DNA from: Eubacterium sp.
GTDB taxonomy: Bacteria; Bacillota; Clostridia; Oscillospirales; Acutalibacteraceae
DNA: 64,000 bases
Assembly: GCA_017445905.1 (NCBI GenBank)
Contig: JAFSRX010000063.1
Location: 1-64,000, forward strand
Direction: 5' to 3'
Shown: piece by piece, positions 11,672-58,817 of the stretch
Layout of the letters: every line of letters starts with the position of its first letter
Numbering within the stretch: position 1 is the first letter of the stretch
Notes under the pieces: model-generated
The model's database searches: none
What the model was told of the DNA's origin: nothing
Seen by the model: the letters and a program-made list of their open reading frames with translations, nothing else
Translations under genes and position numbers: made by a program

Positions 11672-12029
11672 GAGCGTGTGAGGGATAAGCCCTATGAACA
11701 CGCAGCTCGTCAAAACATCCGACGTGATCGAAATAGTTCACTCTGTTTTAACTAATTGAAGTGAACTATTAATAATCACTATGGATGTTTTTCCTTTCAG
11801 ATGCAGTACAAGTATCCGCATCTGCATTACAAATCAAAAAGCAGCATTGCGAAATTTTGATTTGAGAGGAGGAGAAACTGAAGCGATTTTTAATATATTG
11901 CTCATTCAAACAACTAAGAGCAATGTATTCTAATCGCGGAGTTTTCTTCGACGAAAGGTGCTAAAGCTTGACCTATGGGTATCTTAAACGCTCTTTTTGG
12001 AATATATCATTTTAAAAGGAGCATTTTTT
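11672..12029 (+). ncRNA. Dense hairpin region ending in a terminator (candidate structured RNA)
   Basis: After the 46-residue gene there is no further coding frame, but several long stems. These are a clover-like hairpin 11672-11708 (GCGTGT/ACACGC with inner AGGG/CCCT), a three-tier stem 11715-11788 (ACATCC/GGATGT, GTGAT/ATCAC, AATAGTTCAC/GTGAACTATT), AGATGC/GCATCT at 11799-11823, ATCAAAA/TTTTGAT near 11833-11862, and a long stem joining about 11875 and 11945. It ends at 11990-12029 with a GCTC/GGAGC stem and six T. It could be a trans-acting RNA or a structured 3' region of the peptide mRNA. I cannot match it to a named family. Confidence 0.45.
11990..12029 (+). terminator. Terminator at the end of the hairpin region
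   Basis: The stem GCTCTTTT/AAAAGGAGC (with one G-T pair) encloses an AT-rich loop and is followed by TTTTTT. Confidence 0.65.
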
Positions 12030-12043
12030 ATGGTTTGTTTTCG

Positions 12044-12170
12044 GCCGCTCCCAGTGCGAGATGAAGGGAGCATTAAGAGCTTAGCCGCGGTCGAATTTTC
12101 ATAATGCCGTATCGGGCGTTAAATGAAATTTCGAGCACCTCAATGCAGCAGTTAATTAGCTAATCCAGAG
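12044..12170 (+). other. Second hairpin-rich segment upstream of a 30-residue reading frame
   Basis: Two further stems are visible: GCTCCC/GGGAGC at 12047-12072 and a nested stem TCGAATTTTCAT/ATGAAATTTCGA at 12091-12134 that encloses ATGCC/GGGCGT. The segment leads directly to the GAGAGGAG ribosome binding site of the short frame at 12187, so it may be a regulated leader. Confidence 0.4.
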
Positions 12171-12186
12171 AGGAGTTTGGACAATT

Positions 12187-12279
12187 ATGAATCAAAAATC
12201 AGAAGCCAAAAGAAAGAAATACGGTCTGTACGATAAAGGCGGAAATTTCCTGTGTTACCGTATGACTAAAAAGGATTAA
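12187..12279 (+). CDS. 30-residue basic peptide, possibly a recombinase N-terminal relic
   Basis: The frame starts at an ATG preceded by GAGAGGAG (spacing about 11). The peptide is Lys/Arg-rich and includes KKYGLYDKGGNFLCYRMT, which weakly resembles the AP2-like arm-binding N-termini of some tyrosine integrases (R-x-K-x-G-x-Y ... x-Y-R-x-T). It ends 11 bases before the recombinase catalytic domain, in a different frame. It may be an independent peptide or the remnant N-terminus of that enzyme. Confidence 0.4.
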   Translation: MNQKSEAKRKKYGLYDKGGNFLCYRMTKKD

Positions 12280-12290
12280 AAACGAAAAAT

Positions 12291-12953
12291 GTGAGTACGA
12301 TGTACTCACCGCAAAATCAAAAAAGAGCGTCACCGATTGCAGATGAGGAAAGAAAACTTATTCTTGAAACAGCAAAAACACATTACGCCGGAACAATGTT
12401 CCTAACAATGCTTTACTGCGGACTCAGACCAATAGAAATACGCAATCTGAAATGGGCAGATATCGACTTTGAAACCGATGTGCCGACTGTAACCAAGTCT
12501 AAAACAAAAGCCGGAGAAGGCAGACTTCTGCCGATACCTCTGCAACTTAAGAAAGCCTTGCTCGAACATAAACTTAAAGGGCAAAACAACGAGTGGGTGT
12601 TTGTTAGGTACAAGAATCATAAACTGCCGCTGGACACCAACGTCTTCTATCATGCATGGCATAATTTCTGCAGGCAGATGGATATTGAAAACGGCGCTAA
12701 GGTGTACCTCAATCAGATTGTGGAAAGTGTGCTGGCTTCCGACCTGGAACCCTACCTGCTCCGACACACGTTCTGTACCGACTGTCAGGCAGCGGGCGTT
12801 CCGCTGAATGTGGCGAAGGAACTTATGGGGCACAGCGATATATCGGTAACGGCAAAAATCTACACGCACATGGTGGACGAGGTATTCGAGCAGAACCGCA
12901 AGCGCCTCGCCGACTATGCAAACGAAAAAGAAGAACTGTCACAAATGGCGTAA
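12291..12953 (+). CDS. Tyrosine recombinase/integrase, catalytic domain only
   Basis: The 220-residue product has the complete catalytic residues of tyrosine site-specific recombinases: Arg46 (GLRPIEI), the YLLRHTF box with Arg158-His159, His181 (GHSDIS) and the nucleophile Tyr191 (IYTH). The usual core-binding (SAM-like) and arm-binding domains, about 100-170 residues, are absent, and the start (GTG 12291 or ATG 12300) lacks a good ribosome binding site. Either it is a truncated remnant of an element integrase or a stand-alone catalytic protein. It sits in an accessory island with an ImmA/ImmR-like pair and near a tRNA-Gln copy. Confidence 0.8.
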   Translation: MSTMYSPQNQKRASPIADEERKLILETAKTHYAGTMFLTMLYCGLRPIEIRNLKWADIDFETDVPTVTKSKTKAGEGRLLPIPLQLKKALLEHKLKGQNNEWVFVRYKNHKLPLDTNVFYHAWHNFCRQMDIENGAKVYLNQIVESVLASDLEPYLLRHTFCTDCQAAGVPLNVAKELMGHSDISVTAKIYTHMVDEVFEQNRKRLADYANEKEELSQMA

Positions 12954-15599: not shown

Positions 15600-15612
15600 G
15601 GCAGAGGTATAA
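15600..15612 (-). repeat. Copy of tRNA-Gln 3' end (candidate attachment site)
   Basis: GGCAGAGGTATAA exactly repeats the last bases of tRNA-Gln (15783-15795), same orientation, 183 bp away. It lies at the edge of the accessory island. Confidence 0.65.
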
Positions 15613-15749
15613 CAACCTGTCAAGTCACGGTAGTATTTGCTTCGCAAATCTCCACCTTAAAGACTTGACAGAACGTTGTTACGGGTTTAAAGCCATTTTA
15701 AACCCGTAATAAGGATTCTTCGAATCCTCAATTTCTTTTGAGAAAGAAA
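15613..15749 (-). other. Hairpin unit between the two tRNA-Gln 3' ends
   Basis: No gene is seen. Three stems fill the segment: TTACGGGTTTAAA with its complement around 15677-15710, GGATTC/GAATCC near 15713-15728, and TGTCAAGTC/GACTTGACA spanning 15617-15671 with an inner ATTTGC/GCAAAT. The same layout recurs after tRNA-Gly and rpsI. Confidence 0.5.
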
Positions 15750-15775
15750 AACAGGCATCCGTTTGGATGCCTGTT
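15750..15775 (-). terminator. Terminator of tRNA-Gln
   Basis: An 11-bp perfect stem AACAGGCATCC/GGATGCCTGTT with loop of four, followed on the minus strand by TTTTCTTTCT. Confidence 0.85.
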
Positions 15776-15781
15776 CCTCTT

Positions 15782-15855
15782 TGGCAGAGGTATAAGGATT
15801 CGAACCTTAAATGACGGAGTCAGAGTCCGGAGTGTTACCGTTACACTATACCTCT
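15782..15855 (-). tRNA. tRNA-Gln (anticodon CUG)
   Basis: On the minus strand the 74-nt sequence folds as a tRNA: acceptor AGAGGTA/TACCTCT, D-stem GTGT/ACAC, anticodon loop CTCTGAC giving CUG, T-arm with GGTTCGAATCC, discriminator G and an encoded CCA. The outermost anticodon-stem pair is C-U. It reads CAG glutamine codons. A terminator follows, and its 3' end is duplicated 183 bp downstream. Confidence 0.93.
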
Positions 15856-28165: not shown

Positions 28166-28915
28166 CTAGTTAATTTGCCTTTGGATAAGACTTTTTTCCA
28201 TCCCTGTTAATCTGCTTATTTGTCTAATTGATAAGTGATTTTTTCTAAATTCCGTTATGAATTCTTTTTTCTTTTCTAAAGGCAAATTTTGATAATCTTC
28301 AACTGTATTGCAGCCTGTTAATTTTTTAATAATTCTTTGTGCTTCTTCATCTGTTATTCTTACTCTTGCAGGTTCAATTTCCAGATGTTTGTAGCAATCA
28401 GAACTATTATGAAAATCTTCAAACTGTTGAATGCTCATCATTTCTAAAACAAATTCTCTGTCAATTAATTCTGATTTTCCAAAATATTCGTTATAACTGC
28501 TGTATTCATATTCTTTACAATCACTAACAACCCCTGCTTTAACTGGGTTTTTATGAATATACCTTAACGCAGAAAGAAAATACTCATCTGATTCAATAGC
28601 ACAGCTTTTGTATCTGTCTTGAAACAAATGACCAACTCGTTTGTATTTAGTGTTGTACCAATAAACATATCTACTTCCTATACGTTTGAATATCAAATCA
28701 AGTGGTTCGTTTTCTTCCTTTATGAGCAAATGTACATGGTTTCCCATAAGGCAATATGCATATAGCTTAAATTCACTAATTTGTTTGCAATCAGTAAGTA
28801 CTTTTAGAAATTTTTTATTATCTTCTTCATCGTGAAAAATGGCTTGCTGATTTATTCCGCGAAGCATAATGTGGTATATTCCGCTTGAGCTTTTGGTTCT
28901 TGCTGCTCTCGGCAT
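28166..28915 (-). CDS. REP-associated tyrosine transposase (IS200-like, RAYT)
   Basis: A 249-residue single-strand transposase of the Y1/HUH type. The HUH pair is in GNHVHLLI, and the catalytic Tyr is in the RYVYWYNTKYKRVGHLFQ region; the N-terminal GIYHIMLRGINQQ and HKNPVKAG are typical of RAYTs. A C-terminal extension (about 185-249) may be a DNA-binding domain. The start at 28915 follows AAAGGGTG. It is bracketed by REP palindromes at 28130 and 28971, its probable substrates. RAYTs are usually single-copy, domesticated enzymes. Confidence 0.9.
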   Translation of the reverse strand: MPRAARTKSSSGIYHIMLRGINQQAIFHDEEDNKKFLKVLTDCKQISEFKLYAYCLMGNHVHLLIKEENEPLDLIFKRIGSRYVYWYNTKYKRVGHLFQDRYKSCAIESDEYFLSALRYIHKNPVKAGVVSDCKEYEYSSYNEYFGKSELIDREFVLEMMSIQQFEDFHNSSDCYKHLEIEPARVRITDEEAQRIIKKLTGCNTVEDYQNLPLEKKKEFITEFRKNHLSIRQISRLTGMEKSLIQRQIN

Positions 28916-28970
28916 ATTAATCACCCTTTTATATTATACGCCGCTGCTTAACGCTTGTCAATTCAAAATA

Positions 28971-51122: not shown

Positions 51123-51521
51123 ATGTACGAATCAAATCCTTATTTCTACGGAACAGGCAGAAGAAAAGAATCTGTTGCTCGTGTACGCGTTTATGCAGGC
51201 ACAGGTAAAATTACAATTAACGATAGAGACATCGACGATTATTTCGGACTTGAAACACTCAAGCTCATCGTTCGTCAGCCTCTCGCTTTAACCGATACTG
51301 CTGAGAAGTTTGATATCGTTTGCCGTGTAAACGGTGGCGGTGTAACAGGTCAGGCAGGCGCAATCCGTCACGGTCTTTCAAGAGCTCTTCTTCAGTATGA
51401 CGAAAATCTTCGTCCCGCACTCAAGAAGGCTGGCTTCCTCACTCGTGACCCGAGAATGAAGGAAAGAAAGAAATACGGTCTCAAAGCAGCAAGACGCGCT
51501 CCACAGTTCTCAAAGAGATAA
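51123..51521 (+). CDS. rpsI: 30S ribosomal protein S9
   Basis: A 132-residue protein with [27 protein letters not shown] and the basic C-terminus RRAPQFSKR that reaches the P-site tRNA. AGGGAGG precedes the start. The last 21 coding bases and two beyond are repeated exactly 202 bp downstream. Confidence 0.98.
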
Positions 51522-51534
51522 TTTTTCAGAATTC

Positions 51535-51572
51535 AACACCTTTGCTTTGTTGCAGAGGTGTTTGTTTTTTTT
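51535..51572 (+). terminator. First terminator after rpsI
   Basis: AACACCT/AGGTGTT stem with a long loop, then a T-tract of eight. Confidence 0.8.
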
Positions 51573-51590
51573 GCGCGTCTTGCGTTATCG

Positions 51591-51702
51591 GGATCCCCGA
51601 AAAATCGCAGATTTTTTGGGGAGAGGAAGAACAAACGAAGTGTTTGTTATATGCCTGTCTTGCAGGCATATTCGAACACGAAGTTTGTTCTGACGAAGTG
51701 CA
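51591..51702 (+). other. Hairpin unit between the two rpsI 3' ends
   Basis: No gene is seen. TCCCC-GAAAAATC/GATTTTTT-GGGGA (about 51590-51622) is followed by a three-tier stem: AGAACAAAC/GTTTGTTCT, GTGTT/AACAC and TATGCCTG/CAGGCATA (51628-51691). Confidence 0.55.
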
Positions 51703-51725
51703 CCACAGTTCTCAAAGAGATAATT
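51703..51725 (+). repeat. Copy of the rpsI 3' end (candidate attachment site)
   Basis: 23 bases, from CCACAGTTCTC to AGATAATT, repeat 51501-51523 exactly and in the same orientation. Confidence 0.75.
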
Positions 51726-51740
51726 GGTCTATCCAATTTC

Positions 51741-51772
51741 AGCACCCTTGTTTATTCAAGGGTGCTTTTTTT
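51741..51772 (+). terminator. Second terminator, after the rpsI 3'-end copy
   Basis: AGCACCCTTG/CAAGGGTGCT perfect stem with a six-base loop, then seven T. Confidence 0.9.
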
Positions 51773-57980: not shown

Positions 57981-58325
57981 TTATTTATTGTTTTTAGCAG
58001 TATTAACAGAAGCAATCAACAATCTGCGTATTGTTCCACATTGATTTAATAACGCTTTTGTAGTCACTTCGGTAAGAAAACCGGCTTTTTGAAAAAGTTC
58101 TAACCAATATTCAGTTTCATATGTTTCTTTGAGCGCTATTTGTAGTTTTGACACAAAGTCTGATTTGCTTTGAGCGTAGTTGGCTTCATGAATGTTTGCG
58201 CCAATACTTGTTGAAGAGCGCTCTATCTGATTTACAAGTGCAGAATGCCCTTTTATTGTTTCAACTACATTTAATACAGCAACAGAAAAATCCATAGACA
58301 AATCAATTAGCTTATTCTCTTTCAC
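57981..58325 (-). CDS. Four-helix-bundle protein (23S rRNA intervening-sequence family)
   Basis: A 114-residue helical protein with the family pattern SSTSIGANIHEANYAQSKSDFVSKLQIALKE and EYWLELFQKA. The start is a GTG at 58325 with GAGGTG upstream; the longer ATG frame is less likely. Related proteins are encoded in 23S rRNA insertions or alone; their role is unknown. Upstream lies an array of short hairpins. Confidence 0.85.
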   Translation of the reverse strand: MKENKLIDLSMDFSVAVLNVVETIKGHSALVNQIERSSTSIGANIHEANYAQSKSDFVSKLQIALKETYETEYWLELFQKAGFLTEVTTKALLNQCGTIRRLLIASVNTAKNNK

Positions 58326-58344
58326 AATATCACCTCTTATGTAT

Positions 58345-58535
58345 TTTAACATATATAATGAAATATTGCTATGCAATATGAAATAATTTGCTAATGCAAA
58401 TTGTGAAATATCTCGCTGTGCTCAATATGAAATAAAATTAATCCACATACGACGCAGGAGTATTTCATTGCGAAGCAATTTCATATTCCGAAGGAATATT
58501 TCTTTAATCCGCAAGGATTAATTTAATTGGGAGAA
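58345..58535 (-). repeat. Array of six short hairpins upstream of the four-helix gene
   Basis: Small stem-loops such as ATATTGC-AT-AGCAATAT-type, TTTGCATTAGCAAA, ATTGCTTCGCAAT, ATATTCCTTCGGAATAT and TAATCCTTGCGGATTA follow one another at about 20-base intervals, separated by TTTCA/TGAAAT-type joints. Confidence 0.6.
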
Positions 58536-58573: not shown

Positions 58574-58592
58574 TTTGGAGCGGATTACGAGG
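58574..58592 (-). repeat. Copy of tRNA-Gly 3' end (candidate attachment site)
   Basis: TTTGGAGCGGATTACGAGG, 19 bases, exactly repeats 58740-58758 at the tRNA-Gly 3' end, same orientation, 166 bp away. A GGGAGAACC/GGTTCTCCC hairpin follows on the minus strand, taking the place of a second terminator. Confidence 0.75.
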
Positions 58593-58710
58593 TCGCTCGG
58601 CTCGCTTCTGCGCTCGCCGACACGCACGCGGGCATCTAAACAGTCCACAGGACTGTTTTTATTTTCCTTTGGAAAATTGCCCTGTTCGATCCTCATCCGC
58701 TTACCAAATG
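58593..58710 (-). other. Hairpin unit between the two tRNA-Gly 3' ends
   Basis: On the minus strand: GGATGAGGATCGAACAGGGC (part of a 33-bp repeat also at 56862), TTTTCC/GGAAAA, AAACAGTCC/GGACTGTTT, and GTCGGCGAGCGC with its partner. There is no coding evidence. Confidence 0.5.
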
Positions 58711-58737
58711 AAAAAGCATCCCGTTTGGGATGCTTTT
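58711..58737 (-). terminator. Terminator of tRNA-Gly
   Basis: AAAAGCATCCC/GGGATGCTTTT perfect stem with a four-base loop; T run on the minus strand. Confidence 0.85.
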
Positions 58738-58741
58738 CATT

Positions 58742-58817
58742 TGGAGCGGATTACGAGGATCGAACTCGCTACCTTCACCTTGGCAAGGTGACGCTCTACC
58801 GAATGAGCTAAATCCGC
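58742..58817 (-). tRNA. tRNA-Gly (anticodon GCC)
   Basis: On the minus strand the 76-nt sequence folds as a tRNA: acceptor GCGGATT/AATCCGC, D-arm GCTC...GAGC, anticodon arm TCACC-TTGCCAA-GGTGA with GCC, T-arm GCGAG-TTCGATC-CTCGT, then TCCA. CCA is encoded. Its 3' end is duplicated 166 bp downstream. Confidence 0.96.

What the first reader, a model, noticed from the sequence alone, without database searches (positions are those of the whole stretch)
51501..51772. Candidate new class: about 200-bp hairpin units inserted at the 3' ends of housekeeping RNA and ribosomal genes
All three duplications (tRNA-Gln, tRNA-Gly, rpsI) share one plan: gene end, intrinsic terminator, two or three further strong stems, exact copy of the gene end, second hairpin. 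Interval sizes are alike (183, 166, 202 bp) although the sequences differ. Independent scars of unrelated elements would not be expected to have the same size. A non-autonomous element mobilised by a tyrosine recombinase in trans, or an RNA-level gene-end device, would explain the regularity. The stand-alone catalytic recombinase at 12291 is a possible helper.
Basis: inference. Interest (0 to 1): 0.75.

Follow-up and report, generated by a model that had tools for sequence, protein, structure and literature searches.

The report
Mobile hairpin units at gene ends
A small DNA hairpin, a relative of the old E. coli rtT repeats, has spread to the ends of many tRNA genes and a few protein genes, and most copies are framed by sequence matching the gene they sit on, which suggests an unexplained way of inserting DNA.

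Summary
Presence varies: 13 of 27 tRNAs flagged here, 1 of 32 in a congener; at rpsI 22 of 49 loci are occupied (2 remnants). Near-identical bodies sit on different tRNAs with arms matching each host. E. coli rtT repeats share the anatomy at tRNA-Tyr and tRNA-Pro, and one strain has an empty Tyr site. So these look like gene-less hairpins that move between gene ends, with target-matched arms, probably through a folded single DNA strand. The enzyme is unknown. The recombinase at 12291 is a truncated integrase with no detected homologue in the two most unit-rich genomes; IS110, reverse transcriptase and REP transposase do not fit either.

The parts
51123..51521 (+). rpsI gene (target of the unit)
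   Evidence: ORF list; NCBIfam S9, 196 bits
51489..51499 (+). A: gene stretch matched by the inverted copy
   Evidence: I3, 11/11
51501..51523 (+). R1: gene end with stop codon, first copy
   Evidence: D1
51535..51570 (+). T1: terminator-like hairpin and T run after R1
   Evidence: (I4)
51573..51583 (+). A*: inverted copy of A (GCGCGTCTTGC)
   Evidence: I3
51584..51702 (+). H: body, type II (two stems: 51594-51622, 51628-51691)
   Evidence: the same body type at rpsI in five congeners (by eye)
51703..51725 (+). R2: second copy of the gene end
   Evidence: D1
51741..51772 (+). T2: terminator-like hairpin after R2
   Evidence: (I5)
58742..58817 (-). tRNA-Gly(gcc)
58740..58758 (-). R1 of the Gly unit
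58712..58737 (-). T1 hairpin of the Gly unit
   Evidence: I13
58684..58701 (-). A* of the Gly unit; 3 nt (GTA) of the gene missing at its centre
   Evidence: (I12, I16)
58593..58683 (-). H of the Gly unit (two hairpins closed by GGGC/GCCC, then a further stem)
58574..58592 (-). R2 of the Gly unit
15782..15855 (-). tRNA-Gln(ctg)
15783..15795 (-). R1 of the Gln unit
   Evidence: D3
15743..15782 (-). T1 hairpin of the Gln unit
   Evidence: I3 of that region
15719..15728 (-). A* of the Gln unit
   Evidence: I10
15613..15718 (-). H of the Gln unit
15600..15612 (-). R2 of the Gln unit
   Evidence: D3

Best explanation
The units are gene-less mobile hairpins, RtT-like. A body H of roughly 80-120 nt with two or more stems inserts at a fixed point of a target core (for the main family, type I, between T-loop C56 and R57 of tRNAs). 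The product is gene-A-R-[terminator]-A*-H-R: a direct copy of the right half of the target, often with the terminator, keeps the gene working, and an inverted copy of the core (centre altered in several types) lies beside H. SHOWN: regular anatomy; presence/absence among congeners and among E. coli strains; near-identical bodies on different tRNAs with arms matching each host. INFERRED: the arms are made from the target at insertion (direct copy by repair across staggered strands; inverted arm by copying the target beside a hairpin joined to it); the active form is a folded single DNA strand. UNKNOWN: the enzyme. Housekeeping Xer or replication and repair functions are the only candidates I know to be common to the unit-rich genomes examined.
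For: Anatomy: 70 body matches in congeners (72; two partial ones dropped), 56 within 75 nt of a tRNA or tmRNA; 47 of 56 have a direct copy >=11 nt; R starts at -20 in 42 of 47; spacing 111-168. An inverted copy overlaps the T-arm at 44 of 55 tRNA units (the script counts 46, two of them only in the terminator flank); position -23 is covered in 33 and -24 in 3, but -23 to -21 is TTC in these tRNAs, so the informative edge is about -20. Mobility: of 80 bodies, 70 with a tRNA or tmRNA upstream were compared after trimming the arms: the nearest relative is in the same genome on a different tRNA in 19.0 (shuffled mean 8.2, maximum 17 of 500), in a different genome on the same tRNA in 2.8, same in both 8.0, and in the rest, about 40, different in both. 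One trimmed body is identical at tRNA-Arg in G002 and tRNA-Ser in G007, with different, host-matching arms. rpsI: 22 of 49 loci occupied (2 remnants), by at least three body types (by eye); in six type II units A* matches each species' own rpsI codons over 11-17 nt; a 73-bp exact direct repeat including the terminator in L142. E. coli: three units at tRNA-Tyr (L053), one (L411), none (L408), and the same kind of body at tRNA-Pro with Pro arms (L410). DNA level: 20 distinct hp2 stems (from 104 of 116 distinct rows) give 118 Watson-Crick and 0 G.T of 120 pairs, against 38 G.T of 564 in tRNA stems; structure supported by covariation.
Against: No enzyme or intermediate was found. 9 of 56 tRNA/tmRNA units lack a direct copy and 11 of 55 lack an inverted T-arm copy by these tests; some look decayed, some may differ. 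The body behind guaA (L044) has no detectable arm of guaA. Ectopic gene conversion of bodies between old units could mimic part. The inverted copy covers the left half in some types and the right half in others, which one simple insertion scheme does not predict. In the best-covered family it usually stops near -12 instead of running through R, so a plain fold-back at the terminator is not general. In two type V units (L147, L354) the left half of A* does not fit the gene (by eye). The whole alignment contains some G.U pairs, mainly basal.
Confidence: 0.5

Rival explanations
1. Folded-strand attachment cassette: the unit carries its own arms and is recombined into the target core by a tyrosine recombinase acting on a folded single strand, as for integron attC or phage CTXphi attP(+).
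For: CTXphi attP is two inverted target-like sites about 90 bp apart on a forked 150-bp hairpin whose half-sites match dif while the centre does not (PMC3089051, passages); attC has antiparallel core sites with a non-complementary spacer and a variable, sometimes branched tip (PMC2727003, passages). Here A* and R2 are inverted target copies, with altered centre in several types, around a forked body. tRNA, tmRNA, rpsI are classic integrase targets (recalled).
Against: One body family serves many different cores with arms matching the recipient; a cassette should bring donor arms. No dedicated tyrosine recombinase is shared by the unit-rich genomes examined. 0 exact matches to two body patterns in viral contigs.
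Confidence: 0.2
2. RNA device: the units make a small RNA or a processing structure of the transcript (as proposed for E. coli rtT), and the arms stay matched by compensatory evolution.
For: RtT is described as an RNA released from tRNA precursors (PMC4986893, passages) and annotated as sRNA; strong compensatory changes in the stems.
Against: 41 of 47 units have terminator-type spacing before H; no G.T pairs in the distinct hp2 stems; type V bodies are inverted relative to rpsI and some units lie at tRNA 5' ends (by eye); most tRNAs of a congener lack them (1 of 32); near-identical bodies carry different arms.
Confidence: 0.12
3. Old local duplications whose arms are kept alike by slippage and palindrome correction, while bodies are homogenised between loci by ectopic gene conversion.
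For: Direct and inverted repeats of this kind are prone to slippage and template switching (general knowledge); tandem arrays occur; nearest bodies tend to lie in the same genome.
Against: Occupied and empty rpsI sites alternate among congeners with several body types, which differ in the register of A*; an identical trimmed body in two genomes on two tRNAs.
Confidence: 0.13
4. Scars of unrelated integrated elements with coincidentally similar size.
For: Same target genes as integrases (recalled); some tRNA halves in the set are displaced.
Against: Shared bodies, narrow spacing and A*; not expected of unrelated scars.
Confidence: 0.03

Closest known systems
E. coli rtT / RttR repeats (Rfam RF00391 RtT)
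   Same: tRNA end copied every 178 bp, inverted copy GGGGAAGGAT, GATGAGAA...GAGTAATCC around a two-hairpin body; the same kind of body at tRNA-Pro with Pro arms
   Different: The one genus unit that the model matched scores 28.9 bits against a gathering score of 45; here many tRNAs plus tmRNA, rpsI and gyrB; RtT is described as an RNA, not as a mobile unit, in the passages read
CTXphi attP(+) (Xer-dependent)
   Same: Two inverted target-like sites with altered centre around a forked hairpin of about 150 bp
   Different: No phage seen, target not dif, many different targets, arms match the recipient
Integron attC sites
   Same: Imperfect palindrome with antiparallel core sites, unpaired centre and variable, sometimes branched tip
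   Different: No gene cassette in the units; targets are gene ends; integron platforms were not searched for
REPINs / REP elements with RAYT transposases
   Same: Short gene-less palindromes dispersed outside genes (PMC3116915, search listing only)
   Different: No target copies known to me; the RAYT genes of the window's type here are flanked by other palindromes
att-flanked remnants of integrative elements at tRNA genes
   Same: Direct copies of tRNA 3' ends
   Different: Shared bodies, narrow size range, inverted copy, no cargo

Membership tests
RtT (RF00391) | Score at or above Rfam's gathering score | tested here: not met
   No window hit at gathering score; L027 unit 28.9 versus 45 bits, E 0.00043 in a 161-base search; no RtT match at E <= 0.1 in 11 further sources
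RtT (RF00391) | Copies beside a tRNA, each with a copy of the tRNA end | tested here: met
   (47 of 56 with a direct copy)
RtT (RF00391) | RNA released from the tRNA precursor | not testable with these tools
   no expression data
CTXphi-type attP(+) | Two inverted target-like sites with unmatched centre around a forked hairpin | tested here: met
   by eye (Gly, L341, several type V, E. coli Tyr and Pro); type II has no unmatched centre
CTXphi-type attP(+) | Integration at dif by XerC/XerD | tested here: not met
   targets are tRNA, tmRNA, rpsI and gyrB ends; Xer dependence itself not tested
CTXphi-type attP(+) | Carried by a filamentous phage | tested here: not met
   0 exact matches to two body patterns in viral contigs
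Integron attC | R'/R'' box consensus and integron integrase | not tested
   box consensus not scanned
IS110/bridge RNA | DEDD recombinase of IS110 family | tested here: not met
   0 of 19 genus genomes at E <= 0.001
REPIN/RAYT | Cognate RAYT gene flanked by the same palindrome | tested here: not met
   window RAYT 28166-28924 and most of its relatives have other palindromes; body model R1 hits 1 of 38 Y1-gene loci
Tyrosine-recombinase mobilised element | Dedicated recombinase shared by unit-bearing genomes | tested here: not met
   9 genomes searched, 30 of the 44 matches compared as proteins: of those only the Xer orthologue is shared by unit-rich G000, G002, G007, G016; these assemblies are 88-97% complete

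The most novel reading that the evidence does not exclude
A new class of mobile DNA: a hairpin that moves between gene ends of unrelated sequence and acquires both a direct and an inverted copy of each new target at insertion, so that the insertion keeps the gene working. The E. coli rtT repeats would be its best-known member, and the enzyme would be a host function.
Probability: 0.4. Interest if true: 0.92.

Novelty: new variant of a known kind. Interest (0 to 1): 0.78.

Why it matters
Repeats next to E. coli tRNA-Tyr genes have been known for decades (recalled) and are filed as a small RNA. If they are one member of a mobile hairpin class with target-made arms, a mode of insertion is still undescribed, it has left its traces in E. 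coli K-12, and it can be tested there. It could also explain some of the small duplications at tRNA, tmRNA and rpsI ends that island finders may mistake for att sites.

Tried and rejected
Helper candidates. (1) Recombinase 12291: truncated; matches in 12 of 60 genus genomes (own included), none at E <= 1e-20 in G002 and G007. (2) Dedicated tyrosine recombinase: none shared among those compared. (3) IS110: 0 of 19. (4) Reverse transcriptase PF00078: 3 of 19, none in the unit-rich G000, G002, G006, G007, G016. (5) Y1/RAYT: intact genes occur in the five genomes with 16 or more units and in few others (grouping made after the fact), but the 250-aa family is mostly flanked by other palindromes, and the 165-aa family is absent from G000 and G016; kept only as a weak lead. 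Fold-back of the whole R-terminator as sole source of A*: the inverted copy usually stops near -12. Phage origin: two body patterns 0 in viral contigs (the pattern was mis-written and their zeros mean nothing); RtT body in 1 of 50,697 phage records, a 515-kb Salmonella record, and 28 of 72,556 plasmid records, all non-mobilizable, several chromosome-sized. Literature searches; none of the listings showed a paper describing RtT repeats as mobile, but most subscription papers are not held. One search was capped (115 stretches reported, 80 loci given); one of them, L209 (Saccharibacteria), is judged a chance match (no repeat seen, no tRNA).

Full report
1. Check of the observation. All three stretches fold far better than shuffles (z -12.0, -9.0, -10.5). 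In addition each unit has, after the first terminator, an inverted copy of the gene end, here called A*: 11/11, 11/11 and 10/10 nt. The plan is gene-A-R1-T-A*-H-R2.

2. How general it is. A search of the window's genome (2.27 Mb, 75 contigs) gave 31 tRNA hits, 30 of them fetched as loci. Of 27 testable tRNA genes 13 show a direct copy (>=13 nt) or A* (>=10 nt); one (Asp) is an artefact of its neighbour, and two more with short flanks (L004, L011) were seen by an earlier scan. In congener G013, 1 of 32 tested tRNAs does (of 42 hits). Open-frame ends are rarely hit: 1 of 430 in 464 kb for the direct copy, namely rpsI; random positions 44 of 25,200 for the direct copy and 10 for both signs; the inverted sign alone is common (13 of 430 and 481 of 25,200).

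3. Body families. Nine units share a body with two hairpins (type I; alignment A2, model R1). R1 finds 22 matches at E <= 0.1 in the genome, with new sites behind the tmRNA gene (L049; tmRNA 146 bits), gyrB (L043; 17-nt copy at spacing 165, A* 13 nt; gyrB model best by NCBIfam on a partial gene) and guaA (L044; no arm of guaA found), and at a displaced tRNA-Leu end (L034). Of 18 further genomes of the genus, 16 have matches at E <= 0.001, 1 to 40 each; outside the genus 1 of 11 does, weakly. In 60 fetched loci R1 gives 72 matches; I dropped two partial ones. Of the 70 cores, 56 have a tRNA or tmRNA within 75 nt, 47 of these 56 have a direct copy, R starts at -20 in 42 of 47, and spacing is 138-168 in 41 and 111-129 in the 6 that lie close to the tRNA. 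The other 14 mostly follow a displaced tRNA 3' part or an earlier unit (by eye). The 60 loci were taken from the top of the match list, so weaker bodies are under-represented.

4. A* and the centre. At tRNA units an inverted copy covers about -23 to -12; it overlaps the T-arm in 44 of 55 scanned. In several units the inverted copy matches both halves of the core but not its centre: rpsI L341 GCTCT-GCC-AGCTTTCTTAAGA, E. coli Tyr GGGGAAGGAT-GAG-AAGCTTCG (one mismatch in the left half) and Pro GAGGAT-GAG-AACCTCCG, Gly with 3 nt missing. Type II at rpsI has no such gap. In L147 and L354 the left half does not fit the gene.

5. Presence and absence. At rpsI I read 49 distinct loci by eye with repeat scans (30, 20, one genome in both; the window's own included): 22 carry a unit or remnant (6 type II, 12 type V, 1 type Ib, 1 other, 2 remnants) and 27 show none. 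In the six type II units A* matches each species' own synonymous codons (11-17 nt). L142 repeats R and terminator as 73 exact bp. Type V bodies lie in the opposite orientation.

6. Bodies recur on different genes. Of 80 bodies, 70 with a tRNA or tmRNA upstream were compared with arms trimmed. The nearest relative is on a different tRNA of the same genome in 19.0 (label shuffles: mean 8.2, maximum 17 of 500), on the same tRNA of another genome in 2.8 (mean 1.5, maximum 7), same in both 8.0, and different in both in the remaining 40 or so. The trimmed bodies of tRNA-Arg in G002 (L115) and tRNA-Ser in G007 (L118) are identical, yet their arms match their own hosts, Arg with one mismatch in A*. 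Descent at one locus with slow co-evolution does not explain this.

7. E. coli. The rtT repeats next to tRNA-Tyr show the same plan: 21-27-nt copies every 178 bp and A*. The body matches in 4,695 of 5,426 E. coli genomes, 1-14 places each. Strain CKJ_1000_3.1 has a body of this kind (annotated RtT) at tRNA-Pro with Pro arms, and a query covering that locus matches over at least 80% in 2,703 of 5,426 genomes. Strain AH50 has two tRNA-Tyr genes and no unit; the sequence after the gene resembles the flank behind the last copy in unit-bearing strains (by eye). Rfam's RtT model matches a genus tRNA-Tyr unit end to end, below its cut-off. A type I pattern also hits two Holophagaceae and one Acidobacteria contig; in L225 and L231 repeats flank it beside tRNA genes, L263 was looked at less closely.

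8. DNA or RNA. The stems covary strongly (116 distinct rows, 12 of 16 pairs with changes on both sides, 0 of 500 shuffles as high; the alignment was fitted to the model's structure). Distinct hp2 stems (six pairs beyond the two innermost; found in 104 of 116 rows) show 118 Watson-Crick and 0 G.T pairs of 120, against 38 G.T of 564 in tRNA stems of these loci; the whole alignment has some G.U pairs, mostly basal. Together with upstream terminators, inverted bodies and 5'-end units this points to DNA, but it is an inference.

9. Mechanism. The nearest working analogues are CTXphi attP(+) (PMC3089051, passages) and integron attC (PMC2727003, passages): folded single strands with target-like inverted arms and an unmatched centre. 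The difference is that arms here match the recipient. I therefore favour insertion of a folded hairpin with arms copied from the target, enzyme unknown. Helper searches were negative (see Tried and rejected).

10. Verdict. A real, regular and apparently mobile class; RtT-like in anatomy; mechanism open.

Noticed in passing
window 11740-12200 (+): A type II-like body and a stretch like the body of the tRNA-Leu(gag) unit lie just upstream of the truncated integrase; no clear host gene end was found.
   Followed up: partly
window 12209-12227 versus 51463-51481: 19-nt identity (AAAGAAAGAAATACGGTCT) between the stretch beside the truncated integrase and the rpsI coding end.
   Followed up: no
window 58457-58529 (-): Gut-1 RNA (RF01706, 63.1 bits) right behind the tRNA-Gly unit, in an array of small hairpins upstream of a 23S-IVP-like gene (57981-58376 -, PF05635).
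   Followed up: no
window 28166-28924 (-): REP-associated tyrosine transposase (NF047646, 81.2 bits, cut-off 80) with repeats of the type ggtacaggggacggttctctgtacc on its flanks.
   Followed up: partly
L047 84-1298: Tyrosine integrase gene split by an in-frame stop, followed by a displaced tRNA-Pro end with terminator, A* and a type III body.
   Followed up: no
L023, L025, L026 (tRNA 5' sides): Direct copies of upstream sequence plus tRNA 5' end (17-30 nt, spacing 180-284); at L023 and L026 they enclose a different body (type VI).
   Followed up: partly
L410 700-800: A second, cut rtT unit at E. coli tRNA-Pro runs into a REP-like repeat (by eye).
   Followed up: no
L225, L231 (Holophagaceae): The hp2 and junction motif of type I with flanking repeats beside tRNA genes in another phylum.
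   Followed up: partly
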